From: Morinoia aosen
Lineage: Eukaryota > Arthropoda > Malacostraca > Amphipoda > Talitridae
Direction of reading: 5' to 3'
Length of the DNA: 64,000 nt
Assembly: GCA_030386875.1 (NCBI GenBank)
Contig: CM059563.1
Span: 36,246,139-36,310,138, forward strand
The notes below the pieces were generated by a model. The model saw only the letters and a list, made by a program, of their open reading frames with translations. It had not been told where the DNA came from and made no database searches. A program made the translations under genes and the position numbers. Shown piece by piece: positions 2,201 through 56,685 of the stretch. Each line of letters opens with the position of its first letter. Positions within the stretch are counted from its first letter, which is position 1.

Positions 2201-2204
2201 TTAC

Positions 2205-7699: not shown

Positions 7700-7749
7700 T
7701 GGATAGTTGAATACTCATCTAATGATAATCTGATTTTGCTTAATACATT

Positions 7750-38998: not shown

Positions 38999-39391
38999 GT
39001 GACGATACTTCTTGCAGCAAGCGCTTACGTTTGTTTTTTTGGTATCGTAACATGGGATAATCTGTTGTTATTATTTTTTTTTGGCAGTCAAGTGTCCTTA
39101 GTCGACGTGGACACACTCGCGTCAGCAATAGTCAAAAATCAAGGCGTGAATGGCGAACTCTATGAGGAGCTAAAGAAGTCGCAATCACGGATGGACATCT
39201 TGCCAGAGAGCGTCACCGACGTCTTGGTGATGTTGCTGGTGTTGTCTACAATGGGACTAGGGGCAGTCCTATATTACACAATGCGTAGTCTGGAGAATCT
39301 GTCCGATCGTTCGGACCGACTGGAAGACTACCAACTGCAGCGGGCGCCTAGGTTGGCACCAAGGTGCAACAATCACCAAGAACAAGCATAA
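38999..39391 (+). CDS. Gypsy accessory small membrane protein (copy B)
   Basis: A 130-codon frame, homologue of the copy A ORF at 2205-2531. It has the same heptad-like segment (LASAIVKNQGVNGELYEELKK), single hydrophobic span (VLVMLLVLSTMGLGAVLYY) and acidic/Arg tail. Relative to copy A, about 70 bp with the splice acceptor and the ATG are deleted at 39082-39085. The frame is thus fused to a hydrophobic upstream stretch (LLAASAYVCFFGIV) that is intron-like in copy A. The upstream residues are probably not part of the original protein. Confidence 0.35.
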   Translation: MTILLAASAYVCFFGIVTWDNLLLLFFFGSQVSLVDVDTLASAIVKNQGVNGELYEELKKSQSRMDILPESVTDVLVMLLVLSTMGLGAVLYYTMRSLENLSDRSDRLEDYQLQRAPRLAPRCNNHQEQA

Positions 39392-40448
39392 GTCACGAAC
39401 GTTGACAAAGGAGGAGAAGTATTGGTGAATTGAAATTAAATGGAAAAGTTGGGATTAGAAAATTAATTACAATGGAAAATTAGATCGCCAAGTGCAAGTA
39501 ATTATCCAGTGAATTTGATTGAAAAATATTTGAAATTTGTAGTCAAAAGAGTGAAAATTCAATAGTAAAAATTCAATATCGGAATGGTGAGAACTCCCAA
39601 GCGTTAAAAAAGTTGGAAAATGCGTTACAAAAATAATAAAATGCGTTAAATAATAATAAATAAAGTGTTTATTAGCATAACATGTTCCTTTAGAAATAAG
39701 TATTTAACCCTATATTTTGCATCTGTCGTATGGTTCCTCTAAATGTCGACGCTTGATTTCTTATGAAATTTTAATTATTTCAATTATTAAATTATTTAAA
39801 TTATTTTATTTCAAAGTCTGTTTCTGTTTTTGCAATGAGGTGTTTTTTGGTTTGTTTTCCAGTACTTCATATGTTTTAATATATAATCCAATTTCGGTAA
39901 TTTCAATAGTTTAATGTGTAATTTGAGGAGTTTGTTTTTTTTCAATTATCGGAAATTAATTTTTCTTTAGTTGTGTTGGTATAAGAAAATGTGGTCTTTG
40001 TTTTTCTTAAAAAATCCTTACTTCGGTCGACGGGCTGTGGGTCATTTCGCACGGTAAGTTAGTTGTTTGCTTACGCTTGTTGGGATTGCTTTTGCTAATT
40101 GCTAAAAACCTGCTGGAACTTTAGTGTTCCCGTTTTTTCGCTACGTTTAAGTATTTATCCATATTAATCGCTATTTACCCTTATATCTGCTATTAATCGC
40201 TATTTTACATGATTGTGGGGTATGGAGGGTTTTAAAAAATGTTTTTAAAAACAGTGTTTACGCTTTTAATAATGTGTTTCAATAATGGTGTCCTGTGGTG
40301 CATAAATTTTTCAATTTGATTTTGAAATTTTCTTGTGTTTTTTATTCTATCTTTGCGTATTTAGTACGAGGTACAGATGTAACAATAACCTTCTTTCCTT
40401 TGGAATGTTCTTTCTTCCTTTTTGGGGTCTGGCAATGTTCATTTATTT
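39392..40448. other. Gypsy long 3' non-coding region, first part (copy B)
   Basis: A/T-rich, collinear with 2532-3590 of copy A. It is interrupted at 40454 by the Polinton and resumes at 54782. No gene seen. Confidence 0.7.
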
Positions 40449-40454
40449 AGTTGC
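40449..40454. repeat. Polinton target-site duplication, left
   Basis: AGTTGC, repeated at 54782-54787. The unoccupied site TTTAGTTGCGTCTC survives once in copy A at about 3588-3601. A 6-bp duplication is diagnostic for Polinton integrase. Confidence 0.95.
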
Positions 40455-40750
40455 AGTAGTAAGGGGAAAGAGCTTGCCAGCCCAATTTTGGATTTTTGGA
40501 GGATTTCAGCAATTAAAGAACGATCTTGAAAAGCCTCAAAGCATCATCCATGATTTTCGGAGGGTTACAGCCATTAAAGAACGATCTTGTGAAGCCTCAT
40601 AATCCATGATTTTACGAATTAACTGGAGAAGTAAAAAAAAAATATTCTTATTTTGCACAATTATTTCAATACCTAAAATGTTACGATGAAGAAAAAGTGA
40701 TTTGCTACTGAAATTTTTAAAGAAGTGTATAATTTCAATAAAACGTTTAA
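40455..40750. repeat. Polinton left terminal inverted repeat
   Basis: Begins AGTAGTAAGGGGAAAGAGCT. It is the reverse complement of 54491-54781 with about five mismatches and small A-run differences. It contains a 49-bp direct sub-repeat (40490-40538 and 40551-40599, around ATTAAAGAACGATCTTG) also present in the right end. Confidence 0.95.
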
Positions 40751-40807
40751 AATATGTAATAAACTATTTACAATACTTGAATCCCTGTGTGTGTATAGGC
40801 TGGTGTT

Positions 40808-41584
40808 TCAAATTCTAGGTACAAAGTCTTTAAATAACTTTTTCGGAATATAAACTTGGTTCAAATTTCTACAGTATTTTCCCTTTAATGGGTGAACGTC
40901 TTTGTTTATCATTATGTAGCTAAAAGGAATTTTGAAAGTATCACTGCAAAATTCAATAAATTCTTCTAAGGACATGTCTCCTGAGACAATGTCCATATGA
41001 ATATTTCTTAAATCGTTAGTTGGTAATTCAAATAGAATCAATAGGTTTGCATTCGTCCGTATCGACTGACGAGGTAATAAATAATAATTTTGAGTCAAGT
41101 AAATCGAGCCGCAATTATTATGCCCCCCTCGGGTGTAAAAATTATCAGCTGGTGTCTGATTCTTTTCAGTTGCGATGTCATCGAATATAAATAAATTTTT
41201 TTTCTTAGCATCCACTTCACTAGGATCAGGAATAGAAGTGATATCTTCAAAATATTTAACGATTACCTTTGCGCTGCGTTTTACAGCTAAGCCTTCGAGA
41301 AATGTATCAATATTTCCACTACCGATTTTAAAAAGCTCAATTATTTCAGACTGTTTATAACCTTTTGAAAAAGCATTTTTAAGTAGTTTATATTCTGCTT
41401 GTATTGTCGATTTACTATAAAGAAACAGGTTGGTAAAATCGATATATTCCTCAAGAAGAAGTCTGATCAATAAACAGGTTTTACCACAATTCGATCTACC
41501 GACTATTACACACCGTAAAGAAGGTGAAGGAAAAATAAAATGATTCTTTTGATTATTTCTTTTACTGTCTTTCCACATATACAT
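40808..41584 (-). CDS. ATP: Polinton packaging ATPase (A32/FtsK-HerA type)
   Basis: 258 codons. Walker A GRSNCGKT is at residues 29-36, the Walker B hydrophobic strand with LFIFDD ends at Asp135-Asp136, and a sensor-like YLTQNYY is near 160. This matches the genome-packaging ATPase family shared by Polintons, virophages and poxvirus A32, which drives DNA into capsids. It is the last gene of the minus-strand series, next to the left inverted repeat. The start at 41584 follows TATAAAATA, a variant of the motif before other genes here. Intact, with no missing key residue. Confidence 0.92.
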   Translation of the reverse strand: MYMWKDSKRNNQKNHFIFPSPSLRCVIVGRSNCGKTCLLIRLLLEEYIDFTNLFLYSKSTIQAEYKLLKNAFSKGYKQSEIIELFKIGSGNIDTFLEGLAVKRSAKVIVKYFEDITSIPDPSEVDAKKKNLFIFDDIATEKNQTPADNFYTRGGHNNCGSIYLTQNYYLLPRQSIRTNANLLILFELPTNDLRNIHMDIVSGDMSLEEFIEFCSDTFKIPFSYIMINKDVHPLKGKYCRNLNQVYIPKKLFKDFVPRI

Positions 41585-41711
41585 TATTTTATATAACTAA
41601 TAAACTACAACTCATTTTACAATACTTATTTTCTGTTTGTAGCAATTGTAAACATTGTTTTTTTAAATTCGCTACTTCATTAAGTTCAATTCTTCAATGT
41701 ATTTTTCTTTC

Positions 41712-41939
41712 TTATTGGTGTTCTCGTTGGCAATTACGAGAGAAAAAGCTACCTTTGGTGTCATTAGAATCATTACTGATTAAAGTTTCAAGATGAATGA
41801 TATTTGACTCTAATTGAGTTATAACTTCCCTATTTAATTCGACATCATTTTGAATTTGATTAACATCTAATTGCAATTGATTTATGTTTGCAGTATTGCG
41901 AACAACTTCTCTTTGAATGTCTGTAATAATATCTTCCAT
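41712..41939 (-). CDS. Small coiled-coil protein, fibre-cluster fragment
   Basis: 75 codons, nearly all helical heptads (INQLQLDVNQIQNDVELNRE, then ITQLESNIIHLETLI). The start context is TTAATAAAATG. Sequence just before it (41941-41992) and at its end (41677-41718) are direct repeats encoding KKEKxIEELNL in one frame. This suggests the 3' end of the upstream fibre gene was duplicated or split. It is either a small structural protein or a broken-off tail of the gene at 42009-42707. Confidence 0.4.
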   Translation of the reverse strand: MEDIITDIQREVVRNTANINQLQLDVNQIQNDVELNREVITQLESNIIHLETLISNDSNDTKGSFFSRNCQREHQ

Positions 41940-42008
41940 TTTATTAAGTTTAATTCTTCAATGTGTTTTTCTTTTTTATTAAGTTCATCTATTAAAAAAC
42001 ATGTTTTT

Positions 42009-42707
42009 TTAGTTCAACGGTTCAACGGTTTCTCGTCTCAAAGTATTCTCTAACGATATTAATCTGTTTTTAATATCAGCACTGTCATCCTCCAGTTTTT
42101 GCGATGACTGTCTCAATTTTTCTATTTCATTTGTATTTATGATTGTTTCTCTATCCTGTTCATGAAGATTATTTCTAAAAGTTTCAATGTATGAACTCAT
42201 GTCGTTGAATACTCTCTCGAGATTTGCGAAGTCTAATTTCACACTTTTTATTACCTCTTCTTCCAACCTCTTTATCTCATTTTTCAAAAAATCTGTATGT
42301 TCTAAAGTACCTGTTCGAATCACCTTTATTTTTTCCTCAGATATTCTACTATGTTCATCGAGATTTGTTAAAATTTCCCTGAGTTTTTCTTGAAAACTTG
42401 TAGTATTCTCATCTATAGATGCTTGGATAGAATCACTTCTGAACTGATAATTTTCAGTGATAAGATTTTCTCTAACCTCTATATATTTTCTGAGATGAAG
42501 CCTCAAATTTTCCAAAACTTCGTCAACGTATTTTTTGTTCGTAGCGTCAAATTCTTCGATTGGAAAAGAAATATTTGCAAGTCTTCTATTATTTAAATCG
42601 AAATTTTGATCTTCATCAAGATATTTAAAACCTATTCCAGGAGGTCCTGGTTGTGAAGATTAAAATGATTTTTTTCCTTGTTGTCCAAAAATATTTACGC
42701 CTATCAT
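42009..42707 (-). pseudogene. Fibre-like protein with Gly-rich N-terminus, in-frame stop
   Basis: Begins at ATG 42707 right after TATAAAAA. The N-terminus is MIGVNIFGQQGKKSF, then a TAA at 42660-42662, then in the same frame a collagen-like GPPGIGF and a DATNKKYVDEVL motif. That motif resembles one in phage tail-fibre and other trimeric fibre proteins (DA..KxYVD). A long coiled coil runs to 42009. The downstream 168 codons are open from an internal ATG at 42515. I infer a trimeric surface fibre or minor structural protein. The early stop makes this copy broken unless it is a sequencing error or is read through. It lies 18 bp after the larger coiled-coil gene. Confidence 0.55.
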
Positions 42708-42715
42708 TTTTTATA
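42708..42715 (-). promoter_or_regulatory. Start-linked motif TATAAAAA (fibre gene)
   Basis: TATAAAAA abuts the ATG at 42707, within the 18-bp gap after the previous gene. Confidence 0.55.
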
Positions 42716-42725
42716 CATAGAATTT

Positions 42726-44048
42726 TCAATTCTCTAAATTTTCTCTAACTCTCATTGATATCAAATTGTTTACTCGGTCACTCAAACTTTCCACTTCCTG
42801 GTTTAATTTTACATTTTTATCAGTTTCATTCTGGAGCATTAATTTGAACTGACTGATTTCATTCTGATTTGAAATAATGTCTCTTGAAAACTCCTGGAAA
42901 AGACTTTCTACATCACTCAAGTTCTTAGCTAGTTCTTCTATTTTTCTTAATGGGACTGACTCTGCTCGTAATTCCATTATAATTTTGTTAAGACCATTGA
43001 ATTTTTCTTCGCTGGATGAGGTTATGGTTGACTCTAAATTTTTCAGCTTATTGTCAACTTCAACAAACGAAGGTGCTAATGCTACAGTTCTTTCCATAAC
43101 AAAAAGGTTTCTATCACTTAATTCAGTTAGATGTGCCTCTAAGCTTTTACTTTTTTCTTCAACAGTATTGTTCAGTGTTGATTCTAAACTCTTCAGCTTT
43201 TCTTCAATTTGATCATTAAGTGATGTCTGCAAGCTCATTTCTTTTTCATTCTCAACATTAATTATACTAATTTCTTGTTCTTCAACTTTATTACTTATTA
43301 ATAAGTTCTTTGAATCAATTTGATCATTAATTTTAGTTTCTAAAGTCTTCAGTTTTTCATCCATTTGATTTTCTATAACTGACTCTTGATTCTTGAAATT
43401 CTCTTGAATCTCAGGAATTTTAACATCAATCAAATTGGTTATCTTAGAGTCCACAAGCTCAAATTTAGCTTCAACTCCTTTAATCTGATCGGTTAATGCC
43501 AACTCTTTAACTAAGAGCTTTTCATCGATTCTAGTTTCAATACCTGACTCTAGACTCTTCAATTTGTCCTCAATCTCTGGAATTTTTACGTCTGTTAGGT
43601 TGATTATGTTTGAATCAATGTTTTCAAATTTAGCATCAATTTCATCAATTTTCTTCATCAATGTTGAGTCTATGCTTGATAGTCGTTCATCATTTGAAAC
43701 AATTTTTGGTTCGAGAGCAACGAACTTTTCAGATAAATCATAAATTAACGTCTCTAAGAATTTAATGATTGAGTCTACATCAGAAAATTTCACTTGTATA
43801 TCTGTTTTCAGAGTTACATATTTCTCATCATACTCGTTTATAATTGATTCCAATTCAGATCTTTCATTTTTGAGAGCTTCAATTGTGTCTTTCAATGACT
43901 CTATATTAGAATCTTCAAGTAAACTTTTTATTTGCTCTACATTCTGCAAAAGTCCTTCAGAATTATTTTCACTATTTTCATGTTCATGATTTTCTTTACA
44001 GGAAGGTAAATAGACCAACTTTGCTGCATAAATATTTCCACAAGACAT
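42726..44048 (-). CDS. Large coiled-coil fibre-like structural protein
   Basis: 440 codons. A short N-terminal head (MSCGNIYAAKLVYLPSCKE) precedes about 400 residues of acidic Lys/Glu/Ile heptad sequence. Internal repeats occur: TDVKIPEIEDKLKSLESGIE near residue 150 and IDVKIPEIQENFKNQESVIE near 205, both followed by DEKL. Further DEKL/EEKLKSLES-like units come later. There is no membrane span or enzyme motif. By position between protease and the Gly-rich fibre gene, and by architecture, I infer a rod-like virion or tail/fibre component. It could instead be a scaffold. The start follows TTTAAAAA directly. Intact. Confidence 0.6.
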   Translation of the reverse strand: MSCGNIYAAKLVYLPSCKENHEHENSENNSEGLLQNVEQIKSLLEDSNIESLKDTIEALKNERSELESIINEYDEKYVTLKTDIQVKFSDVDSIIKFLETLIYDLSEKFVALEPKIVSNDERLSSIDSTLMKKIDEIDAKFENIDSNIINLTDVKIPEIEDKLKSLESGIETRIDEKLLVKELALTDQIKGVEAKFELVDSKITNLIDVKIPEIQENFKNQESVIENQMDEKLKTLETKINDQIDSKNLLISNKVEEQEISIINVENEKEMSLQTSLNDQIEEKLKSLESTLNNTVEEKSKSLEAHLTELSDRNLFVMERTVALAPSFVEVDNKLKNLESTITSSSEEKFNGLNKIIMELRAESVPLRKIEELAKNLSDVESLFQEFSRDIISNQNEISQFKLMLQNETDKNVKLNQEVESLSDRVNNLISMRVRENLEN

Positions 44049-44056
44049 TTTTTAAA
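44049..44056 (-). promoter_or_regulatory. Start-linked motif TTTAAAAA (coiled-coil gene)
   Basis: CTTTAAAAAATG, identical to the context of the capsid gene and the DUF8207-like gene. Confidence 0.6.
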
Positions 44057-44095
44057 GAAAAAAAATTAACTGTAGTTTATTTTCTAAAAACTAGT

Positions 44096-44530
44096 TTAGG
44101 TTTTATATAGATCTAAAAGAATTGCATGAAAGCTTTCATTTTCTAAACGCTTCAGCATTTCTAGACATAAATGTCCACAAATTACATCACCTATTTTCTG
44201 GATTTTGTAAGTAGAGAAAATTGTATCAACACAATCTGTTAAGTAGTCTTTAAATTCAATTGGATAAATCAAACCATAACTGTCAAAGTAATAACATATT
44301 TTATCTTTCTTATACCAACAAGTCCAATGCGTTCCTAATCCTTTTTCAGTGTCTAAGTTTAGGATTCCGCATTCCGTTTCTAGAGGATGTTTAGGTAAAG
44401 TATCTCTCATGTAAACACCTCGAAAATTCGGAATTTTCAATATATTTATGTAGTATTCCAAATCATGTTTAGATAATGGTTGGTTAGGTATTACTTCTTT
44501 GGTGGTTTCAAGTAGAGACCCTTTCCACAA
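44096..44530 (-). CDS. PRO: Polinton adenain-like cysteine protease
   Basis: 144 codons of the adenovirus/Polinton maturation protease family (C5-like), which cleaves capsid precursors. The catalytic His68 lies in GTHWTCW, Asp83 in YYFDSYG, an upstream Gln111 is available for the oxyanion hole and Cys122 lies in CGHLCL. The upstream conserved block IPNFRGVYMRDTLP is also present. The length is that of a minimal single-domain member. The start overlaps the 3' end of the zinc-ribbon gene by 23 bp and lacks the TTTAAAAA motif, so it may be translated from the same mRNA. All catalytic residues are present. Confidence 0.9.
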   Translation of the reverse strand: MWKGSLLETTKEVIPNQPLSKHDLEYYINILKIPNFRGVYMRDTLPKHPLETECGILNLDTEKGLGTHWTCWYKKDKICYYFDSYGLIYPIEFKDYLTDCVDTIFSTYKIQKIGDVICGHLCLEMLKRLENESFHAILLDLYKT

Positions 44531-44879
44531 GTTTTTTTTTTCTCGGAGTTATCCGTATACCTGAACCTTTTTTACTTTCCATTGCTTCATTGTGCCTTTT
44601 AGTTTCTGACAAGAGTTTATCATCAGCTTTTTTCTTATTGACTGCGGATGCTATTGCAGCAGCACCTCCAGCCAAAGAGCCAGCAGCCCCAAGGCCAGCT
44701 AATAAAGCTGGAATTGTAAATATAAAACCACCTTTCGTCGCAGTATCTTTAGAAACGAAAGAAGTCTTTGTCTTTTTACAAATAATACACATACCTTTGA
44801 CAAGTATCTTATTGTTCTTTGTAATTAAATATTGAGGATTATCAGTATCAGTTTTCTTCTTACACTTTACACAATACAT
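44508..44879 (-). CDS. Zinc-ribbon plus Gly/Ala membrane segment protein
   Basis: 123 codons. The N-terminal zinc ribbon has two CxxC pairs (YCVKCKKK and CIICKK, residues 3-6 and 31-34), like the DUF5679-type ribbon seen in Polintons. A Gly/Ala-rich hydrophobic stretch follows (IPALLAGLGAAGSLAGGAAA, near 55-74) that could insert in a membrane, then a basic tail (ITPRKKKLVER). Location between capsid and protease suggests a minor virion protein, perhaps membrane-active and processed by the protease. That is inference. Start preceded by TTTAAAAA. Confidence 0.65.
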   Translation of the reverse strand: MYCVKCKKKTDTDNPQYLITKNNKILVKGMCIICKKTKTSFVSKDTATKGGFIFTIPALLAGLGAAGSLAGGAAAIASAVNKKKADDKLLSETKRHNEAMESKKGSGIRITPRKKKLVERVST

Positions 44880-44887
44880 TTTTTAAA
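44880..44887 (-). promoter_or_regulatory. Start-linked motif TTTAAAAA (zinc-ribbon gene)
   Basis: GTTTAAAAAATG directly at the start codon. Confidence 0.6.
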
Positions 44888-44914
44888 CATTATTATGTGA
44901 ATATATTTTAATTT

Positions 44915-46182
44915 TTAGTAGTTTAAACTCATTTTATCACCGTTAGATTGCAATCGAATTACTCTGTCAGATAGAATCAGTGCATATGCATGTGTATCAT
45001 CAGGAATATTAGTTTTAAATTCTGCCTTAATTTTAATATCAATTGTAGTTTCCTTGATGCGTTCATTTTGTCTGCTGATATCAAACACATAGATGGGATA
45101 CAAATATTTAAAGTGTCTATATTCGATAGCACAATTTTCATTAGGTACATAATCTATTAACATCTTATAAGCTGTAGCATAATTTTTAGAATCGAAATCA
45201 ATCTGTAAATTGTGATCAGGGTATCGTTCATTATTCAGCTGAACATATGCATTCGTCAAGTTACAATGATCGAAAATTGCATTGTTTACAGCTTGTGAAT
45301 TAGCTTTCTTAGTTTGGAATGCTAAAATTATCTATCGAGGTCTTTGAGATCCTGAATTTGGAGTTAAAGTCCAATCTAAGAATTTCTGTTGAGAGTTTAC
45401 AATTGTTTGTTCCAATTGTCTATTCAGATATGGAATAGGTAATGTTATTTTATCCTTAATTTGACGATATAGCTTTATTTTATACTCATCAGGCAGTTTG
45501 TAAGCTGGCATTTTCCAAATTAATTTTGTAATAGTAATTTTACCATCAACTACTTTATCTTGCTGGTTTGCATCTTTCTCATCTGATTTGAATATAGCAT
45601 TAGAATTATCACCTCTTCTTAAAGTCAGAGCATGTTTCACTCCATAAATTACCTTCTTATAATTTTCACAAAATCCAAACACATGTTCAAGTGGGATAGC
45701 AGCGCTGAATTTCCCATTAGCTGAACTTAAGTAGTCATTTCGATCGCTAAATCCTTCGTTTGATTTTTCATTCTTCTTAGTATCGACGCTCCAGAAAATA
45801 TCATGTTTTCTTTAACATTTCGGGGATAGCTAACTAATCCTTTTAGAGTTGTTGTAATTCCAGGGTAACTATAACCTTCAATTTCTTCATCTCCAATTCT
45901 GTAAGAAACTCTATCAAACAAATGCATTAATCCATTGTTGATTATTGTTACTTTTTCATCTTTAAAATTATAATCACTTCCATCTTCTTCATTCAAAGCT
46001 CCTTCTATATATATAAAACTTTTACTAGGTAATACGAACTGATCTTGATTCTGGATAATGATCTTGATATCGTTATGTTCACGATTCAGATCAGTACCTA
46101 TTTGTGGTTCATAGTTATGCGTTTCAATTTTTTCAATTGATTCATCAACTTTAATCTTTTCATTCCATCTTAAAGAATCCAT
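44915..46182 (-). pseudogene. MCP: Polinton major capsid protein, one frameshift and one stop
   Basis: The capsid candidate runs in three open pieces. 46182-45727 contains QFVLPSKSFIYIEG and an LFDRVSYRIGDEEIEGYS block followed by PGITTTLKG, as in arthropod Polinton capsid (double-jelly-roll, PY) proteins. 45682-45332 holds the middle (VIYGVKHALTLRRGDN, LPIPYLNRQ). 45259-44915 is the end (YPIYVFDISRQNE). Near 45727 a one-base slip changes frame; the middle piece is open just upstream of 45682 in its own frame. At 45332-45334 a TAG lies in the same frame as the last piece. About 420 codons in total. It would form the icosahedral shell. As read it is not translatable as one protein. Confidence 0.75.
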
Positions 46183-46190
46183 TTTTTAAA
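46183..46190 (-). promoter_or_regulatory. Start-linked motif TTTAAAAA (capsid gene)
   Basis: CTTTAAAAAATG at the capsid start. Confidence 0.6.
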
Positions 46191-46210
46191 GATAATTTTA
46201 TCAAGTTATC

Positions 46211-46909
46211 TTAATTTCTAGATCTTAGGTGTAATCGAACAGTTACTTCTTCACCTCTAGTATTCAGAGTATGTCCATTTTGATCAGTAAGCCAAATTCT
46301 CAAATCATAGAGTAAAGGTTGATATATCGGTAGATAAATTGGTTTATTTGGATTTTCTACAATTTTATATCCTGGTGGGACGTTTGGGAAAAAGGAATAT
46401 AAAATATTATGCAAAGAACCATTAAGGTATGAGCCGTTAATTGCACTACAATGAACGAGTATTGCGTTAACAGACATTATGTTCACTATATTTATACTTT
46501 CATGTTCTCCAACACCTTCTAAGATAATTTCTCCAAATCCCAACATTGTATTTAAAGATTTTTCTTTATTGAAAAATACTTTTAACGTAGATGAATGGAG
46601 AACTATGACGCATTTCAAAGTATTAGTATTTGCTTTGATTTCAATAAAGCCTGCCAATGTTTTTTGAATGAATTCGTTTATACTTTCTATTTCATAACAT
46701 CCTGTTGGAAGTGTAATTACATTTTCAACACCATTTAATTCATAATGAAATTTATTATTATTTTCATCAATGTTAGGAATAGAATGATACATGTCTAACC
46801 CAACCAGTGCCATTTCGTGAAATTTATTTTTGTTCAATTCTATTGCTGGACTAAAGTTTATACTTATGTCACTTTTTCTTTCACTAATTACAATGCTTTG
46901 AGATTCCAT
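46211..46909 (-). CDS. Penton-like minor capsid protein candidate
   Basis: 232 codons immediately upstream of the capsid gene, where Polintons carry the single-jelly-roll penton/minor capsid gene. Predicted beta-rich with no enzyme motif. Recognisable blocks include FHEMALVGLDMYHSIPNI, a Gly-Cys-Tyr-Glu stretch (LPTGCYEIESINEFI) and a C-terminal LYDLRIWLTDQNG..TRGEEVTVRLHL, like homologous proteins in other arthropod Polintons. I assign penton by position and fold expectation, not by a specific motif. Start context TTTGAAAAATG, one change from the common motif. It overlaps the end of the DUF8207-like gene by 22 bp. Intact. Confidence 0.65.
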   Translation of the reverse strand: MESQSIVISERKSDISINFSPAIELNKNKFHEMALVGLDMYHSIPNIDENNNKFHYELNGVENVITLPTGCYEIESINEFIQKTLAGFIEIKANTNTLKCVIVLHSSTLKVFFNKEKSLNTMLGFGEIILEGVGEHESINIVNIMSVNAILVHCSAINGSYLNGSLHNILYSFFPNVPPGYKIVENPNKPIYLPIYQPLLYDLRIWLTDQNGHTLNTRGEEVTVRLHLRSRN

Positions 46910-47988
46910 TTTTCAAACAATAAATCATCAAACACCTTTACTTCAGCAGTATTTAATAGACCTTGTTTTAAAAGTTCATGCGTAAGTATTTGCAGTTCAT
47001 TAAAAACTCCTGTATTTCCAGCGGTGAACGAACCGAACAATAACTGGTGTCTTTTTACAAGATCATTGATGTTAGATGGCAATACAATAATACCTGATCC
47101 TGAAACGTCTGAATCCTCTCTGTGAGGATGACGAGGAGGTATAGGAGAAGATGTAGGAGTAGGAGTTGGTCTAAAAGTAGACCTTAGTGACGGGTCGAAA
47201 ATTGGTCTTTGACTTGTTGAAGGAATTTTGTATCGACTCGAAATTGAGGATTCTACTATTCTTGGGTTTCCTAAAGGACTTGGTTCAGGGCTTGATTCAC
47301 GACTTGATTCTCGACTTGATGGACTTGCTGATCTAATTGTTTCAACTGCAGCTTGAGCTTTTTTTCGTTGAACTAAACGATAGAGGGGTTTGATAAATTT
47401 AGAATATTTCTCACCCCTATTTGCTTTTACGGTACCGTCTTCCTTCAAATAAGCATCAGTTGAATACAACATTTCATAATGATTATTTTTATCTTCATCC
47501 CTAAAATCAATAGGATTTTGCTTTGTTAATAATTCCCATAATCCAGTTGTGCCTTCGTATATTCTATCTCCAATTTTCAAATCATTACCCAAAATATCTA
47601 CCTTTTTATTTCCTAGCATAACTTTACTTCCATCCCAACGAATGCCATAAGCTTTGTCATACTCATTTCCAGGTTTCCATGCAAAACGCAAGAAATCCAA
47701 TGCGATAGGCCCAACTACAGTGTTGGATTCAGAAGATGGCAAAGCTAGTTTCTCAGCAGGTTTTCCTTGGATAGATTCAAGTTTTTCATGAGGTATATCT
47801 TTTAGTGCCAACCTAGTTTGTTTAGTTTCGTCAACAATTTTAGATAAAGGTTCAATCAATGGTTTGTAAACTTTTTTGACATCATGGTATAAATCTTGTT
47901 CGAGTATTTTATCAGTTGTGAATTGCTTTTTCAAACTCTTTGTTAAGTTTAGTAAATCTGATTTAGTTTTGATATCAATCAACGCCAT
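46888..47988 (-). CDS. DUF8207-like Polinton protein
   Basis: 366 codons. An N-terminal helical part (residues 1-80) is followed by a conserved-looking core from about 92 to 165: GPIALDFLRFAW, DKAYGIRWDGSKVMLGNKKV, YEGTTGLWELLTKQNP. This matches the DUF8207-type protein found beside capsid genes in arthropod Polintons. The C-terminal third is disordered, Ser/Arg/Pro-rich (SSRESSRESSPEPSP) and then Thr/Pro-rich, ending in a short helical segment. The role is unknown; a minor virion or assembly protein is plausible from its place between integrase and penton-like genes. Start preceded by TTTAAAAA. Intact. Confidence 0.65.
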   Translation of the reverse strand: MALIDIKTKSDLLNLTKSLKKQFTTDKILEQDLYHDVKKVYKPLIEPLSKIVDETKQTRLALKDIPHEKLESIQGKPAEKLALPSSESNTVVGPIALDFLRFAWKPGNEYDKAYGIRWDGSKVMLGNKKVDILGNDLKIGDRIYEGTTGLWELLTKQNPIDFRDEDKNNHYEMLYSTDAYLKEDGTVKANRGEKYSKFIKPLYRLVQRKKAQAAVETIRSASPSSRESSRESSPEPSPLGNPRIVESSISSRYKIPSTSQRPIFDPSLRSTFRPTPTPTSSPIPPRHPHREDSDVSGSGIIVLPSNINDLVKRHQLLFGSFTAGNTGVFNELQILTHELLKQGLLNTAEVKVFDDLLFEKWNLKAL

Positions 47989-47996
47989 TTTTTAAA
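47989..47996 (-). promoter_or_regulatory. Start-linked motif TTTAAAAA (DUF8207-like gene)
   Basis: CTCTTTAAAAAATG at the start codon. Confidence 0.6.
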
Positions 47997-48032
47997 GAGA
48001 AAAATTCAAAAAGACTTTAACTTAATATAAGT

Positions 48033-49112
48033 TCACTCTGAACTGACATTAAGTTCAGTTGCTGAGATCCATGAAGGTTCATCATAACCTTTCCACTTGA
48101 CCAGAAGTTTTCCTTTACTCTTCTTGAGAATTTTCTCAATTGCATAAACATCACTAGTATATTTTGATAGTTCTTGTTCATAAAAACTTCCTTTTATTTC
48201 TTCACCATCCATATCTTTTAATCTATAAGTAATTGGTTCAGTAGACAGTATTTCGGATACAATGAATAACTCATTAGTGAAGTTTGGCAAATAACCCTTC
48301 CGAAAGTCCTTCCGTTTCTTGCTTATTCGTACTCTATCCCCAATTTTGAGTTTCGGTGATGTGAAAGTTGGTTCGGTTGGAGGGAATAAGTTATCATAAG
48401 CCTTTTTACTGTTCTTTTCCAGTGATGCTTGGTTAGGTGTCATTTTAATTGTTCTATGATAGCTATTATTGTAATTTTGCATTAAATCTTGTAAAATATT
48501 CACCCATTTTTTAGTTTTCATGTGTGTAAAATATTTCCACATTTTAGTTTTTAACGTCCTGTTGAAGCGTTCCACAACTTGAGCTTTGGTTTCATTTTCT
48601 GAACTAAACCACTGAATGTTATGTTTCTTGAATAGTTCTTGAGTGGATTTATTTGTAAACTCTAATCCTTTATCTGTCTGAACTTTAGAAGGAATTCGTA
48701 TTTTGAATAGTTTTTGAAATGAAGTTTTGATTTTTTCACCTGTCTTCTTACTTATTGGAATCGCCCATGCATATTTACTGGAAATGTCAATTACTGTTAA
48801 AATGTAGTTTTTTCCTTGATCTTTATAGTTTTGCATGTCAACCAAATCAGCTTGCCATTGATCATCAATTTTTGATACCTTCACTCTTCTCGTTTTGAAG
48901 TTATGTTTTATTGGTTTATGTAGAGTGTGAGTTTTTTGAGTTTCTAACCAATTTCGTACAAGGGTTGAAGATAAGCCGGATTTTTTAACAAGTTGATTCA
49001 TTCCAGTGTAACCAGTCTTTGGATTATAATATAAGTCATTCAAGATTTTATCGCTCACATCAGTGAGCGTGTTTGATAGTTTTTTGTCGACGAGAGGCCC
49101 ATTCCTGACCAA
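48033..49112 (-). CDS. INT: Polinton integrase with C-terminal chromodomain
   Basis: 359 codons of the retroviral-type (rve) DDE integrase family, which cuts target DNA with 6-bp stagger and joins the element ends. The first Asp is near residue 89 (WQADLVDM), the second at 147 (QTDKGLEF) and the Glu at 181 (VVERFNRTLK). An SH3-like C-terminal region (LKIGDRVRISKKRKDF) follows, then a chromodomain at about 320-355 (LLVKWKGYDEPSWI) with aromatic cage candidates Tyr/Trp, expected to guide insertion to modified chromatin. It overlaps the PLA2-like gene by 58 bp, without its own TTTAAAAA motif. Intact with all catalytic residues. Confidence 0.94.
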   Translation of the reverse strand: MVRNGPLVDKKLSNTLTDVSDKILNDLYYNPKTGYTGMNQLVKKSGLSSTLVRNWLETQKTHTLHKPIKHNFKTRRVKVSKIDDQWQADLVDMQNYKDQGKNYILTVIDISSKYAWAIPISKKTGEKIKTSFQKLFKIRIPSKVQTDKGLEFTNKSTQELFKKHNIQWFSSENETKAQVVERFNRTLKTKMWKYFTHMKTKKWVNILQDLMQNYNNSYHRTIKMTPNQASLEKNSKKAYDNLFPPTEPTFTSPKLKIGDRVRISKKRKDFRKGYLPNFTNELFIVSEILSTEPITYRLKDMDGEEIKGSFYEQELSKYTSDVYAIEKILKKSKGKLLVKWKGYDEPSWISATELNVSSE

Positions 49113-49585
49113 CTCTTACCTGCCATAATTGCGTTAACTAATTTAGCATCTTGTCGAACGTATTCTGATTCATTTGGATCAGTTGCAATTTCAGCGGCTC
49201 TTTTTGCTAGAATATCATCAGCATAATTTCTGTCTTTCGTTTTTGGATGTTGTGAATAAAATATGTCATGATTCTTACAAGCCTGATCGAGTGAGTTAAC
49301 TCCTCGATAACCTTCTTGAATTCGCTTCTGCACCTTAGTTCCTGGACCGCACAATGAGTAGGTATGTTTATTGTTGAATGAACCGTTCGGGACTTGTTCA
49401 GATTGAATATTAGATGGTAATTTCAAATGCATTTCAGGTAATGGAAGTTTTCTAAGCAATGTATTTACAATACCCTTCCCAGTTTTTTCTTCATTAACTA
49501 TTGATTTCAAATCACTCAAATACTGTTCATTTTCATTAGATAATAAATCTTGGTTATAGAAGTCATTATTGTTGTAGATAATCAT
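49055..49585 (-). CDS. Phospholipase A2-like protein (parvovirus VP1u type)
   Basis: 176 codons. A calcium-loop-like YSLCGPGT (residues 76-83) is followed by ACKNHDIFYSQ with the His106-Asp107 catalytic dyad, and a second helix with NYADDILAKRA (near 120-130). This is the layout of the compact PLA2 domain found in parvovirus VP1 and in some Polintons, where it helps break endosomal membranes during entry. Active-site residues are present. The N-terminus has KLPLPEMHLKLP just before the domain. Start follows TATAAAAA. It sits between PolB and integrase and overlaps integrase at its 3' end. Enzymatic activity is inferred. Confidence 0.82.
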   Translation of the reverse strand: MIIYNNNDFYNQDLLSNENEQYLSDLKSIVNEEKTGKGIVNTLLRKLPLPEMHLKLPSNIQSEQVPNGSFNNKHTYSLCGPGTKVQKRIQEGYRGVNSLDQACKNHDIFYSQHPKTKDRNYADDILAKRAAEIATDPNESEYVRQDAKLVNAIMAGKSWSGMGLSSTKNYQTRSLM

Positions 49586-49593
49586 TTTTTATA
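49586..49593 (-). promoter_or_regulatory. Start-linked motif TATAAAAA (PLA2-like gene)
   Basis: GTATAAAAAATG at the start, in the 18-bp gap after PolB. Confidence 0.55.
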
Positions 49594-49603
49594 CTTTATT
49601 TAA

Positions 49604-52600
49604 TTAATATATTTTATAGTGATTTAGTGCTAGTGTGTTGATACCATCTGGTAATATATGTCGCTTGTAATCATTACCATTTAATGCAACCTTATTTATT
49701 TCTTTAGTATATAATTCGTGGTTAACACTTTGGATATTATACATCGTTTTGTATATTGTTTCATTATTCAATGCTCTTTTATATTCATCCATTGTGATAT
49801 TGTGCTCAGTTATGTTCTTACTTACCCCTTTTGCTTTCTTACTCACGGAATTTTTCGTCTTGTAACAATATAGTTTTGCTCTGAGACCAACGAATTCTTC
49901 AATTGGTATTCCACACGTTTCGTCTTTCATTTTCCCAATCACTTTCATTTTTTTAGTTGAATATAGGAAGTGTTCTTTAGAATAGTATGATGTATCATAC
50001 AAGTCTTTATTTCTTTCCATATCTTTGTACAAATCTTTTGTTTCGATATCATAACATAATGAATCTGTATCTGTAAACAATAACTTTGCCTTATTACCAT
50101 ATTTCTTTTTAATATGATTATAATGGAAATCATACATTAATGTTTTACTTATATCTAATACAGATAACCCTACGTAGATTGGTTTATCAAATTTCAGTCT
50201 TTGTTTTTGCATATGACATGCTATCAAATTTTCTGAGAATATTTTAAAACTGGTAAAGTTTGGTTTATTTGCTAATTTAATTAATTCTTTCTCTGACTTT
50301 ACCAAACACACATCTACTCTATTTCTAATATTTTCCATTGTTTTACCAAATACTGAATTGTTCATCAGCTTGTAGAAGTCTTTTTCAAATTCAGATTTAG
50401 CTTGCTGGCGCATTTTTGTGTTGATATCAATATATGATTTCATCCATGGACTTTCATCAAACTCTAATATTCTGTGAATTTTCTCCAACTTCAATCCTAG
50501 ATCTAGATATTGTGTTAGAGATTTAAGATGTACAACATATTTTTCTCGTTTTCCAAGATGGGGAACTAATTTATTTACATCGTTTACTTTGATATTTTCT
50601 GGAGCTAATGGTAAATCATTATGTAGAGCATGTAAGTCTTTTGGATAACTTAAATCAACTTCTAATATATAACCTTTATCTGCTTTGAGTTTCGACTTTG
50701 GATCTTTCCATTTAAAGTTACCAGTAGGTAATGATCGACACATAGCCCAGCCGTAAAGATTATTTGCATCTATGTATGTGATAAAACTATTTGGTTTTCC
50801 TTTATCGAATGTTTCTGGAATATATGGATTGTTTGCTTTTGCATATCGTGTTGATATTGTAGAAATCCCACCTCTTATTCCTTTTTCAATGAATAGGAGC
50901 ATATCAGGATCTTCAAACAAGTCCAATTCTATTTTTGTATGTTCCAGTAGAGCATCGAAAGACAATCCTGGAGCCGTAAAATAATGTGCTGGATCTAGAG
51001 AATAAGTTTTCATGCATGTTAGTCTAAATTCTTCAAATACATCTGCTAATAATAATGTATCCACTTTTAGATATAAATTATGGTAATCTTTGAATGTTCT
51101 ACAATTAAAAGCTCTCCACACTTTGAGTGCATGCTGATATTCATCTTCTGAAATATTTTTATTATTTAATCTACTGTAGAATTCACTTTTAGCTGGTAAA
51201 CTATTAACATTCATTTTTTCATAACTATTTACATATTCATACGGATAAATACCTTTTTTGTTGATCAACTCTAATTGTTGTTCATTGAGAAAGAACTTCG
51301 ACAATTCTTTGTGCTCAGATAAATTCTTTGATAGTTTATCCAGAGACGAAGGTAAAAACCTGTAGCTGTCTAAAAACCGTAAGTCTCTGGTGATATCTTT
51401 AATTTTTCCTGTATGTTTACATACATAATAATCTGCTTTTATGGTTTGTGTAAAACTAATATATTCTTCATCTGTTTGTGGAATAACGTTCAACTTTCCG
51501 GATATATTTCCCAAGTCTTTCACAAACAAATGAGCATCGTAATTAGACAGATTGTGTAGAAACACAGGTATAAAATTAGGATTCCTAATTTTTAAATTAC
51601 ATTTTAAATGAGCTGGACCTCTATAATGACCTGTCAAATGATTGTGGTCTCTAACTTTATAGTTATCTTCCGTAAATTCTCCGCCACATACATAGCATCT
51701 TGTGGCTTCTTTATATTTTTCGAATTCATCTGATGGTAAATACATTTTCTTATTCATTTTAAACAGACTATAAATTCTCTTGGTCTCTTTTTCTAAATAT
51801 TCTACAAACTTTTGGGAAGCATCTTCACCATTATATATTTCTAAGCGGGAATATTCATCTGCTTCACATTTTGTATAGCAACAGAATGAATTAGGATTGT
51901 GCTTCTGAATGTTCATGGTGTAACTTGAGTTTTGATTTGGTTGACACGTATCTATTTTTGTCAATGTTGATTCAAAGTCAGCATAAATTGTGAAAGGATG
52001 TCTAATTGTTTTTTGGAAATGTTTAAATTTCAATTTACCTCCCTCAAGAACATACTTTGTTGGAGTGTGAACTGAGCAATCGTCTTTATGTTTATCTAGA
52101 ATATCTGATCTTCTAAAAACTGATAAACAATACGGACATACATGTTTTGTGTAATGGTTACTGGTTTTACAATAAGGACTCAATGATTTCATGAGAACAT
52201 AGTGAGTCGTGTTTGTATCTCTGATGAATAGTAATGATACCACATCTTTATTCTTTGATGTTGATATTCTAAGTGGACACAATTCATTATTATAATTAAA
52301 ACTATAAACGTTAACGGAAATGTTATAATTTTTTTTCGAATTTGGTTATACTTTTTAGTTCTACGGGGAACCTTATATCAGAAAAATTGAGTTTCTCGGC
52401 TTCAGCTTTTAGTCTTTTAGAAATTCGATGACCGTTTTTTCATCTAGACAGAAATATCTCGCGATAAACCATTTAAAGCATTCATTGTCGGTGTTTTGTA
52501 TATTTATTAATTTAAAATTGGGATTTCGAAACTTCTCAGGTAATTCAATATAGCTTGACCCTGTAATCGGTTGTATTCAACGATTTTCAAACTGAACTCT

Positions 52601-53781
52601 AATAATTGTTCAACTATCCAACCAGATGAATTTCTTGTGAAGTCATCGATTTTATTAACAACCTCTTTGTGTAAATTTGCAATTTCTATGTATCCTTTTG
52701 ATGCTGTCACAAATTTGCCAGAGTTGAACCAAGCTTGGCAGCTTAGCTTTTCATTTTTTAATTTTAATTTATAAAATTGCACTTTTAAATTAAGCTGTAG
52801 CTTGAGATTGTCAAATGCTTGATTTTTTATTACTTTTTCAATTTCAGGTGTGAAGTTTCTGAGAAATACCTCATAATCCTTGATTGATATATCTCCATTA
52901 TCATACTGTGAGCTCATTCCATTTATTGCTCTAGTAACTTTTCTAAATTTACATCCATAAACATTCCGGAAATGTTTCAATGATTTTCTATGACTATAGA
53001 TATTTGTCAGGTGTTTTTTACATATGTCACAATATTTTTTTAACTTGTTTTTACGTAGAGTGAAGAATTTATTAGATATTAACATATTATCAGTGTTTTT
53101 CATATGTGTCAGTGTCTTTTCATGTTTGTTAAAGTTTTTAATAGATACATTACAGATATTACAGAATACATTGAATGGTTTATTCATTTTTATAAAACTC
53201 TTATCTGAGGGTATTTTATTTTTTTCGGGATCAAATGAAGTCAATACTTTCTTTGTGTGTATTTTCGAGTTTTTATGTTGAGTGAAGAATTTATTAGATA
53301 TTAAAATATTATTAATGTTTTTCATATGTGTCAGTGTCTTTTCATGTTTGTTAAAGTTTTTAATAGATACATTACAGATATTACAGAATACATTGAATGG
53401 TTTATTTATTTTTATAAGATTCTTATCTGAGGGTATTTTATTTTTTTCAGGATCAAATGAAGTCAATACTTTCTTTGTGTGTATTTTCGAGTTTTTATGT
53501 TGAGTGAAGAATTTATTAGATATTAAAATATTATTAGTGTTTTTCATATGTGTCAGTGTCTTTTCATGTTTGTTAAAGTTTTTAATAGATACATTACAGA
53601 TATTACAGAATACATTGAATGGTTTATTCATTTTTATAAGATACTTATCTGAGGGTATTTTATTTTTTTCAAGATCAAATGAAGTCAATACTTTCTTTGT
53701 AGGTTTTTTCGAGTTTTTATGTTGTCGTGTTTTTTCATTGTTATATAATCTATATACATCTGATGATTTATCATATACCAT
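49604..53781 (-). pseudogene. POLB: Polinton protein-primed DNA polymerase B, three frameshifts
   Basis: About 1390 codons in total. The N-terminal part (53781-52507, 424 codons) has tandem C2H2-like fingers and then an SGWIVEQLLEFSLKI block typical of arthropod Polinton PolB. Between 52510 and 52283 the coding signal hops through frames: a NIQNTDNECFKW block, then RFPVELKSITKFEKK, then NISVNV. This gives slips near 52510, 52415 and in the 8-A run at 52329-52336. The 892-codon main part has a zinc finger (CPYCLSVF), ExoI YADFEST near 100, an endonuclease-VII-like treble clef (CYVCGGEF, DHNHLTGHYRG), motif A DANNLYGW near 502, motif B NNSVFGK near 639 and motif C TDTDS near 736. It replicates the element using a protein primer. 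As read it is broken. Confidence 0.9.
53060..53725. repeat. Triple 222-bp tandem repeat encoding zinc fingers in PolB
   Basis: Three in-frame units (53060-53281, 53282-53503, 53504-53725) of 74 codons each, very similar to each other. Each carries one FCNICNVSIKNFNKHEKTLTH finger-like block and a KKVLTSFD..KNKIPSDK linker. A diverged fourth finger (YCDICKKHLTNIYSHRKSLKH) follows. Being a multiple of three, copy number can change without breaking the frame. Confidence 0.93.
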
Positions 53782-54490
53782 TTTTAATACAATAAAAGTT
53801 CAACTAATTTGAAAAGTGTGAGTTCAGTAGTAGCACCTCCTTTAAGTACTCAGGCGAGAAAGCATCTGAAGTGAACCCGGAAATTTTTGCTCCTAATCAC
53901 AAAAATTCAATCATGACGAGCAATTGGGGGTGTCAAATCTTGCATCATGGTTTGTAACCGGAAAGTATTTGAGAATATTTCATCATGTTTTACAACCGGA
54001 AAGTATTTAAAGGGGGTTGCATCATGTTTTACCATCGAAAAGTTTTCAAGAAGGTTGCATCATGTTTTACAATCGGAAAGGAGATTGCATCATGTTTTAC
54101 AGCTGGAAAGTATCTAAGAAGGTTGCATCATGTTTTACAGCTGGAAAGTATCTAAGAAGATTGCATCATGTTTTACAACCGGAAAGTATTTAAGAAGACT
54201 GCATCATGTTTTACAACCGGAAAGTATTTAAGAAGGTTGCATCATGTTTTACAATCAGAAAGGAGATTGCGTTATGATGTACGGCACAAACGTGAAACTT
54301 GATAAGAATTCATAACTATATTTTAAAGATTATTTGACATGCTTAAAAGCATACACTCATTATACCCTTGATAATCTTTTAAACCTAAATATTCAGCAAA
54401 AGATTCCCATCCTATATTTGTATACATTAGTTTCTTCTAATAAATTTTCTATAGTTGTGAAGAAAACGAGAAGATTTTGAGGGGATACCT
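53782..54490. other. Non-coding gap between PolB and right inverted repeat
   Basis: Contains the minisatellite 53940-54277 and A/T-rich DNA. A 34-codon minus-strand frame (54427-54323, MYTNIGWESFAEYLGLKDYQ...) has no known relative and lacks the start-linked motif. I do not call it a gene. Confidence 0.5.
53940..54277. repeat. Minisatellite, about 38-bp unit, nine copies
   Basis: Units of GCATCATGTTTTACAACCGG then AAAGTATTTAAGAAGATT with small variations. Some units are shortened to 28 bp (AAAGGAGATT ending). It sits between the polymerase start and the right inverted repeat. Confidence 0.92.
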
Positions 54491-54781
54491 AAACGTTTTA
54501 TAGAAATTATACACTTCTTTAAAAATTTCAGTAGCAAATCACTTTTTCTTCATCGTAACATTTTAAGTATTGAAATAATTGTGCAAAATAAGAATATTTT
54601 TTTACTTCTCCAGTTAATTCGTAAAATCATGGATTATGAGGCTTCACAAGATCGTTCTTTAATGCCTGTAACCCTCCGAAAATCATGGATGAGGCTTTGA
54701 GGCTTTTCAAGATCGTTCTTTAATTGCTGAAATCCTCCAAAAATCCAAAATTGGGCTGGCAAGCTCTTTCCCCTTACTACT
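54491..54781. repeat. Polinton right terminal inverted repeat
   Basis: Ends CTTTCCCCTTACTACT, the reverse complement of the left end. It has the same internal 49-bp sub-repeat. The right duplicate AGTTGC follows at 54782-54787. Confidence 0.95.
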
Positions 54782-54787
54782 AGTTGC
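54782..54787. repeat. Polinton target-site duplication, right
   Basis: AGTTGC, followed by GTTTCATTATAATTATGTGG, which continues the Gypsy 3' region exactly as copy A does after 3596. Confidence 0.95.
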
Positions 54788-55327
54788 GTTTCATTATAAT
54801 TATGTGGGCGGTGTTTAGTTGGTTATTTTAACTGTGCGATTGTTTAGTTGATAGTTTAACATCGAACAGGGCATTATAATTTTCGTTCGCTCAGCTGCCC
54901 TTATTTTTGCTTATGTTGCAAAACTTGCGATAACTATGATCGTTCTTAAATGGTGTTGTTGGTGAGTTAGTTAAATTTCGATGCATACATTTTAAATTTT
55001 TAATGGTATGGGTCGGTACGTTTTAAAATTATTGACGATTTAAAATAATGGCGTTACTATTAACCAGGGTTGTCGCGTTAATTATTGAGTAACTTTTGTC
55101 AACTTTCCTTGTTAACTTCATGTTAAGTTGTTTAACGGTTTTGTTCATTCTGCGAATTCTTTTGAGTTTTTGAGTAACCGTTTAAAATTGTCCTTGTTAA
55201 TTTTGTTTGCAGAAATTTTTGTAGTTTACGTGCAACAGGTTCGTTTTGTTGCGAGTACTTTTCGAGTTTTTGATTACCCAGATTGTATTTAATTTTATTT
55301 TGATTCAATTGTTTGCATCTAGTTTTC
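54788..55327. other. Gypsy 3' non-coding region, second part (copy B)
   Basis: Collinear with 3597-4128. No gene seen. Confidence 0.7.
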
Positions 55328-55344
55328 GGGGGGGGGGGGACATA
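55328..55344 (+). promoter_or_regulatory. Polypurine tract of Gypsy (copy B)
   Basis: A run of eleven to twelve G and ACATA before the LTR TGTGCAG. The G run is longer than in copy A. Confidence 0.75.
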
Positions 55345-55541
55345 TGTGCAGTAAGCACACATAAACTCTTGCCTTCATTGTCTTGACAGGGTCTCGTAAG
55401 ATCTTGAGATTCCGCCGTCTATAAAACTGCGCCGTGCCTAGCTGATGGCGCTCAGTCATACATATTCTCGCCTGTTGCCAACGACACCTGGCTTCTACCA
55501 ATAAACATTTTCGCTCTACCGTGTTTCACTCCCACCACATA
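55345..55541 (+). repeat. Gypsy 3' LTR
   Basis: 197 bp, matching 18769-18965 and 4147-4343, with the TATA-like CTATAAAAC and an AATAAA. Target duplicate CTTA follows at 55542-55545. Confidence 0.92.
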
Positions 55542-56393
55542 CTTACAGCAAGATGGTTTGCAGCACTGAAGAAGAAATGCTTTATAAATATTTTACCATG
55601 AGTTTTATGAACTTTGGAGTCAATATATTTTATAGTTGAACCATTTCATCGCTAAAATTTACAAAGTATAAGAAATCAACTTACATGTTTAATTTTCACT
55701 GAATTGAAACATGCTGTTAACGTAAATGTTTCATTTTATGCAAATAATATATGTTCCATTGAATAGCCTACTTCGCCTCTCACAGGATCATTTTAAAAAT
55801 TGAGTATATTTCAAAAAGTATCTGTAAAACTAATTTCCTGAAGCAGTATTAGAATAGTAACAAAACACAGCAGGAGGAAAAAATGAATGAAACAGTTACA
55901 CAGTATAGTTGTTTATCAGTTCATTCGAAAGAAAATCTGATTGATTATCTGATCACGAAATTTCCTCATGATGAAAAGTAATGTTTCAAGATCAACTAAT
56001 GCAATTTATGGCGAAGAAAGATTTTTAAATTTTCCAAGCTGTTCAATGATTTGTAACCAATCCTTATTCAAAACCTTCTTACGTCGTGTATAAATATTTA
56101 GAGGATTATAACATGGTGGCCTTCATGGCATCCGTAATTGTCTGGTTCCTATTATATATGCAACAATTTGATTGTTGAAGCAAGGCATTTGTGTCAAATG
56201 ACATAATTTCTAAAAATAAGACATAATTGCATTCCTAACATCCCACAAAAACTAATTTATTTGTATTATTTGAAAACATAATGTTCAAGAGAGTAATTCA
56301 AATCTAATATATGTATCTACTTACGTGCATCGGTAGCCTTTTGTTTCTTCCCTAGGAGGCTCTGGAAAGATTTCAAAATAGCAATTCTTCAAA

Positions 56394-56685
56394 GCAGCTG
56401 AGGGACAATGTTTTTATTACACCAACCACACAATTTGTCTTGCAGTGCAGGATTCTGAGCTTCAAAATCTTTTGATTCCTCAATGATGGAAATTTCTTCT
56501 TGGGTGGTGGAATTACTGTCATCTTCTTCATTGCCAATAGCAGGAGGCTAGCGCTCATCATTTGTGTTCTGAAAAAATTCATCAATACTTTCACAAGAAT
56601 AAGATTCTTTGATGTTGCTAACAGCTTTCAATACAGTTGAATCACTGTCATCAATTACTGATTTGTCATCACCACTTTCAGCCAT
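56394..56685 (-). pseudogene. Exon-like acidic ORF with in-frame stop (copy B)
   Basis: Counterpart of 5195-5486: ATG at 56685, the shared in-frame TAG at 56548-56550 exactly 45 codons on, then Glu/Ser-rich codons and a CxxC pair. The terminal stop here is TGA instead of TAA. The family is not recognised. Confidence 0.35.

What the first reader, a model, noticed from the sequence alone, without database searches (positions are those of the whole stretch)
40455..54781. Near-complete Polinton with the empty site preserved in the same window
The sequence shows 295-bp inverted ends, an AGTTGC 6-bp duplication and, in copy A at about 3588-3601, the unoccupied target. That fixes the element ends to the base and dates the insertion as later than the segmental duplication, or allelic to it. 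Such internal controls are rare.
Basis: partly seen in the sequence, partly recalled or inferred. Interest (0 to 1): 0.8.

Follow-up and report, generated by a model that had tools for sequence, protein, structure and literature searches.

The report
Polinton family with measured target sites
A 14-kb virus-like element (a Polinton) in what is likely an arthropod genome sits at one exact spot of a repeated host sequence whose other examined copies are unoccupied there, and 47 insertions of its family favour one kind of target centre, so that its integrase likely picks easily bent DNA.

Summary
The element is a Polinton/Maverick: rve integrase, protein-primed polymerase with a terminal-protein fold, packaging ATPase, double-jelly-roll capsid protein, penton, 6-bp duplication, ends AGTAGT//ACTACT. 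It is not intact: polymerase and major capsid frames are broken. The dating needs correction: copies A and B are members of a dispersed repeat; 15 further fetched members are also unoccupied, and one is closer to B than A is. The window's genome (1.99 Gb, probably an arthropod) holds a large, recently active family: 113 scored integrase matches of 96% identity or more, 16 of 16 other paired copies with perfect, different 6-bp duplications, 6 of 16 with identical ends. The main gain is a target-site profile: in 47 distinct insertions the central step is pyrimidine-purine in 38 and purine-pyrimidine in none (background about 22-23% each; P about 1e-16). Retroviral integrases with a 6-bp stagger are reported to show this preference weakly. 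The polymerase also carries a zinc-finger array before its primer domain, whose 222-bp unit is present 1 to 3 times in different copies.

The parts
40455..40749 (+). left terminal inverted repeat, begins AGTAGT
54490..54781 (-). right terminal inverted repeat, ends ACTACT
40449..40454 (.). target site duplication AGTTGC, left
54782..54787 (.). target site duplication AGTTGC, right
3589..3594 (.). single AGTTGC of the unoccupied site in copy A
40808..41584 (-). A32-like packaging ATPase, 258 aa
   Evidence: PF04665 E 1e-6, above its cut-off
42009..42659 (-). coiled-coil protein with PGPPG near its start, possibly fibre-like (guess); 13 distant relatives
42726..44048 (-). coiled-coil-like protein, 440 aa, function unknown
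   Evidence: matches below cut-off only
44096..44530 (-). probable Ulp1/adenain-type cysteine protease, by position and recalled motif; no family match
   Evidence: 0 families
44508..44879 (-). DUF5679 protein with a hydrophobic stretch
   Evidence: PF18930 E 2.2e-12
44915..46185 (-). [quoted passage not shown]
   Evidence: PF21738 in all three pieces, two above and one (E 6.6e-4) below its cut-off
46211..46909 (-). penton / minor capsid protein, open frame
   Evidence: model pLDDT 92.5, best PDB match mavirus penton E 1.6e-10
46888..47988 (-). 366-aa protein of unknown function, open frame
   Evidence: no family
48033..49112 (-). rve integrase, open frame
   Evidence: PF00665 E 9e-14; PFV integrase and others in PDB
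49055..49585 (-). phospholipase A2-like protein
   Evidence: PF08398 E 1e-8
49604..52345 (-). polB, exonuclease and polymerase part, open frame
52412..52576 (-). polB piece (OTU-like by position and recalled motif), cut off from both neighbours
   Evidence: matches 114 of 120 polB relatives
52510..53799 (-). polB N-terminal part: four zinc-finger motifs, then terminal-protein fold (about residues 292-411)
53047..53724 (.). 222-bp tandem repeat, 3.1 copies, each unit one zinc-finger module of polB
391..8049 (+). copy A of the host repeat (unoccupied)
37313..59412 (+). copy B of the host repeat, carrying the element

Best explanation
The segment 40455-54781 is a Polinton (Maverick) with complete ends and broken polymerase and capsid genes, inserted with a 6-bp duplication into one member of a dispersed host repeat, and its integrase is predicted to have joined a linear, protein-primed copy to the two strands six bases apart. 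In the family as a whole the joined sites have a pyrimidine-purine step at their centre in 38 of 47 insertions and a purine-pyrimidine step in none, so the integrase likely has to bend or unstack the target there (inferred). The window's own site (AGTTGC, centre TT) is one of the 9 intermediate sites. Shown: ends, duplication, unoccupied relatives, gene identities by family and fold, broken frames, family size as a lower bound, target-site profile. Inferred: replication from a terminal protein made by the polymerase's N-terminal part, staggered strand transfer, and decay of the genes after insertion.
For: Ends, duplication and empty site. Unoccupied relatives. Genes. Family: 40 of 40 scored end matches (of 335 candidates); 16 of 16 other pairs with perfect, mutually different 6-bp duplications, all AGTAGT...ACTACT; end pairs identical in 6 of 16; 113 integrase matches scored (of 13,022 candidates; the window's included), all at 96% or more, 85 without a stop by my count of the listing. 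Target profile: 38 of 47 YR, 0 of 47 RY; the second set, fetched after the pattern was seen in the first, alone 20 of 24. The two ends of a copy resemble each other more than ends of different copies (mean 2.7 against 5.1 differences; 0 of 10000 random pairings as low), and 6 variants private to a copy occur at both of its ends, in 3 copies.
Against: The window's own target centre is TT, not YR. The protease frame matched no family, and the exonuclease/polymerase frame did not hit the Pfam polB model nor any PDB sequence, although it matches thousands of relatives. Calling the central step an integrase preference assumes that the insertions seen reflect where integration happened. All copies come from one genome.
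Confidence: 0.88

Rival explanations
1. The element was present before copies A and B split and was precisely lost from A.
For: Both copies share the site and flanks; the excision mechanism of Polintons is stated to be unknown (PMC2836005, passage).
Against: A has a single AGTTGC and no footprint; 15 further relatives, one closer to B than A is, are also unoccupied; end-pair divergence 4/292 is not larger than A/B divergence 194/6451 (Fisher, one-sided, P 0.064).
Confidence: 0.03
2. A and B are alleles or an assembly artefact, so that the element is a heterozygous insertion.
For: 3% divergence is possible between haplotypes of an invertebrate (recalled); a 500-N gap lies at 67455-67954.
Against: No N lies between A and B; upstream contexts differ (satellite before A, gypsy and BEL elements before B); the same sequence occurs unoccupied on several other contigs.
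Confidence: 0.07
3. The YR centre reflects which insertions survived or local composition, not integrase choice.
For: Only insertions that are still in one assembled genome were seen.
Against: Background YR is 0.22-0.23 and RY 0.22 in the flanks, yet RY is 0 of 47 at the centre, and counts at positions 2/5 and 3/4 of the duplication mirror each other without being symmetrised.
Confidence: 0.12

Closest known systems
Polinton/Maverick (Polintoviricetes), vertebrate Mavericks of PMC8097293
   Same: 6-bp duplication; ends (AGT)2//(ACT)2, their commonest motif; TIR 295 bp within their 46-1447; length 14.3 kb within their 12.7-24.6; integrase, pPolB, ATPase, capsid genes (section 7 read)
   Different: all recognised genes on one strand, whereas vertebrate elements mostly have two modules on opposite strands (Xenopus tropicalis has one strand); phospholipase A2-like gene; zinc-finger array before the terminal protein
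pPolB with TP-vOTU-EXO-PALM layout (PMC11071308)
   Same: N-terminal part folds like the little finger of Y-family polymerases, as that paper reports for polinton terminal proteins (passages; our)
   Different: four zinc-finger motifs stand before the terminal protein here; the words zinc and Zn-finger do not occur in that paper's main text
Retroviral integrases with 6-bp stagger (ASLV, MMTV, HTLV-1, HERV-K; PMC4422553)
   Same: 6-bp duplication, weak palindrome, YR favoured and RY avoided at the centre
   Different: that paper states that the enrichment falls with stagger length (abstract, sections 8 and 13 read); here YR is 81% and RY absent. Its percentages are in figures that are not held, so sizes were not compared number by number
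Mavirus-like EMALEs (PMC8547959)
   Same: integrated relatives (rve integrase recalled) with empty and filled sites compared
   Different: duplications mostly 3-5 bp and no sequence-specific integration reported (passages)

Membership tests
Polinton/Maverick | rve-family integrase | tested here: met
   PF00665 E 9e-14; retroviral integrases in PDB
Polinton/Maverick | protein-primed family B polymerase | tested here: met
   73% identity over the full frame to the closest relative; 5896 proteins with E <= 0.001 among 7989 scored candidates; terminal-protein fold: 49 of 50 listed rows are Y-family polymerases. Pfam's polB model was not hit. The gene is broken in this copy
Polinton/Maverick | A32/FtsK-like packaging ATPase | tested here: met
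   PF04665 above its cut-off
[quoted passage not shown]
   PF21738, two of three pieces above the cut-off; broken
Polinton/Maverick | single-jelly-roll penton | tested here: met
   mavirus penton E 1.6e-10, adenovirus penton bases next
Polinton/Maverick | Ulp1-type cysteine protease | tested here: inconclusive
   44096-44530 is in place but matched no Pfam family and no PHROG; catalytic motif recalled only
Polinton/Maverick | terminal inverted repeats of hundreds of bases | tested here: met
Polinton/Maverick | 6-bp target site duplication | tested here: met
   window and 16 of 16 other pairs
Polinton/Maverick | (AGT)2//(ACT)2 ends | tested here: met
   window and 16 of 16 other pairs
Polinton-like virus (PLV) | mostly lacks pPolB and rve integrase (PMC11071308, passage) | tested here: not met
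   both present
Adintovirus | distinction from Polintons | not tested
   the defining paper is not held

The most novel reading that the evidence does not exclude
Polinton integrase chooses targets by the flexibility of the central base step almost as a rule (pyrimidine-purine or neutral, never purine-pyrimidine), more strictly than reported for retroviral integrases with the same 6-bp stagger, so a 6-bp stagger does not free an intasome from bending its target; and in this lineage the primer-polymerase carries a zinc-finger array whose length changes between sister copies by a 222-bp in-frame repeat, a fast-changing end-recognition module.
Probability: 0.5. Interest if true: 0.65.

Novelty: new member of a known kind. 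Interest (0 to 1): 0.5.

Why it matters
Animal Polintons are seen as virus-like, but a description of how they pick a target was not found in two searches of the held library (listings); the EMALE paper found no sequence specificity (passage). A recently active family with dozens of exact insertion sites in one genome makes the integrase's target rule measurable and comparable with retroviral intasomes, and gives datable copies in which end exchange and module turnover can be followed.

Tried and rejected
Integrase and penton searches in IMG/VR found no relative; polB found two distant contigs (38-39%) in whose held parts no long inverted ends were found. The phage collection had no integrase match. 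PHROGs (6 proteins), Rfam and tRNA scans: nothing. polB frame against PDB sequences: nothing. Mobilisation in trans by working relatives was considered as the cause of the broken genes; at the divergence of the ends about 5 stops (1 to 13 over the interval) are expected by decay after insertion, so it is not needed. A first finger count tied to a narrow motif was replaced. My notebook says 7 of 16 identical end pairs and 10 of 15 AGTTGC; a recount gives 6 of 16 and 11 of 15, which are used here. Rows dropped before the target count: L114 (no end motif), L106 and L125 (same flank as L105 and L124), L111 (other end of a counted copy); with the duplicates kept the count is 40 of 49 without L122. 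The background 0.234 comes, 0.222. The two-strand composition is symmetrical by construction and is not used as evidence.

Full report
Observation. The inverted ends are 40455-40749 and 54490-54781, with 4 mismatches and one 3-base gap. The 6-bp repeat AGTTGC flanks the element and is present once, without footprint, at window 3589-3594.

The site. Copy A and copy B differ at 194 of 6451 bases. They are not a private duplication: the 601 bases around the empty site give 48 matches in the genome (40 of 248 candidates scored). By my count 29 of the matches other than A run through the site; I fetched 15 of them. All 15 are unoccupied, which follows from that choice, and 11 of 15 carry AGTTGC exactly. 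Apart from copy B no pair of matches breaks at the site; two matches begin at query base 301 without a left partner and were not looked into. The nearest to B's flanks is C8:35863348-35863948, inverted and about 0.42 Mb from B, 11/601 against 14/599 for A, grouped with B at local support 0.95. So the element entered B after B parted from that copy. Ends of the element differ at 4/292 (1.4%, interval 0.4-3.5%), compatible with this. The window has no N; satellite of 159-bp period lies on both sides of copy A and to the right of copy B, and the one gap found in 30 kb of added flank is at 67455-67954.

The family. The genome G000 has 1,990,973,590 bases in 29 contigs; 115 matches to the cuticle domain PF00379, with none in the 14 control genomes, suggest an arthropod (the link of that domain with arthropods is recalled). 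Of 335 end candidates 40 were scored and all 40 match; they form the window's pair, 16 other pairs and 6 single ends. All 16 other pairs have perfect, different 6-bp duplications; end differences are 0 in 6, 1-7 in 9 and 12 in one. Integrase: 113 matches scored of 13,022 candidates, all 96% or more, 85 of 113 without a stop by my count. Of 20 polB-side stretches fetched, 5 have an open frame of more than 1100 codons, so long unbroken polB frames exist in the family; none is singled out.

Ends behave as a unit. Within-copy end differences average 2.7 over 286 bases, between-copy 5.1; 0 of 10,000 random pairings are as low. Six variants private to one copy occur at both of its ends, in 3 copies. 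TIR arms are 292-295 bp in 16 of 17 pairs and 410 bp in one, where the repeat runs further into ATPase-side sequence. The polB-side sequence inside the TIR comes in three types (about 97-100%, about 86-89% like the window, and a third with other sequence), while the ATPase-side ends are 97.0-98.7% like the window's. Inference: ends are copied from each other during replication, and the region behind the polB-side end is exchanged between lineages.

Target sites. From 47 distinct insertions (17 complete pairs, 6 single ends, 24 further ends) the central step of the 6-bp target is YR in 38, RY in none, YY or RR in 9; background YR 0.222-0.234, RY 0.222; P 1.4e-16. The second set, fetched after the pattern was seen in the first, gives 20 of 24 (P 9e-10). 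No other step has a YR excess; the two neighbouring steps are correspondingly rich in RY (17 and 26 of 47). A stands at -3 in 31 of 47. Retroviral integrases favour YR and avoid RY at the centre, less so at 6-bp stagger (PMC4422553, abstract, sections 8 and 13, passages). The retroviral-type catalytic core of this integrase makes the same physical reason likely: the target is bent or unstacked at its centre.

Zinc fingers. Among 120 polB relatives, finger motifs (by pattern) before the terminal protein occur in 9 of the 14 members of the window's clade in which that domain was found (a fifteenth lacks it; some of the five without fingers begin at the domain and may be cut short) and in 0 of 99 others with the domain (6 others lack it). 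Within the family the 222-bp module is present 3 times in the window and in one of the 20 fetched stretches, once in 4 and twice in 15. That the fingers bind the element's ends is a guess. A search for papers holding polinton, zinc finger, terminal protein and protein-primed together found none.

Mechanism, marked. Shown: ends, duplication, unoccupied relatives, target profile, gene identities. Predicted: protein-primed replication giving linear DNA with identical ends; integrase joins both ends six bases apart; repair gives the duplication. Decay: with about 0.7% change per branch since insertion some 5 stops are expected in the coding sequence, which fits the broken genes.

Literature basis. 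PMC8097293: passages and section 7. PMC11071308, PMC6431247, PMC2836005, PMC4028283, PMC12220804, PMC8547959: passages only. PMC4422553: abstract, sections 8 and 13, passages. Searches for a published Polinton target preference: (listings), none seen; most subscription papers are not in that library.

Noticed in passing
20330-26520 and 27520-33710: Two BEL-like retroelement bodies in the same orientation, 99.5% identical over 6191 bp (32 mismatches, no gap); the second lies in a 1729-aa open frame.
   Followed up: partly
1-379, 8049-13891, 59412-64000 (on to 67454): 159-bp satellite with 40-bp substructure on both sides of copy A and after copy B; an assembly gap of 500 N starts right after the last satellite base.
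   Followed up: partly
L039/L076 and L055/L080: Family subtype with about 2.1 kb of other sequence between the polB-side end and polB; in one of the two, where both ends were read, the terminal repeat is 410 bp.
   Followed up: partly
58111-58272 and 2161-2222: Two further copy-specific segments: about 162 bp only in B and about 62 bp only in A; not analysed.
   Followed up: no
53940-54262: 38-bp tandem repeat (TTGCATCATGTTTTACAA...) between the right end and polB, 8.7 copies here and 5.7 in L064.
   Followed up: no
L001 (IMGVR_UViG_3300028392_002905): A distant metagenomic relative (polB 38%) with integrase-, ATPase- and capsid-like frames and a 589-aa repeat protein, judged by eye only.
   Followed up: no
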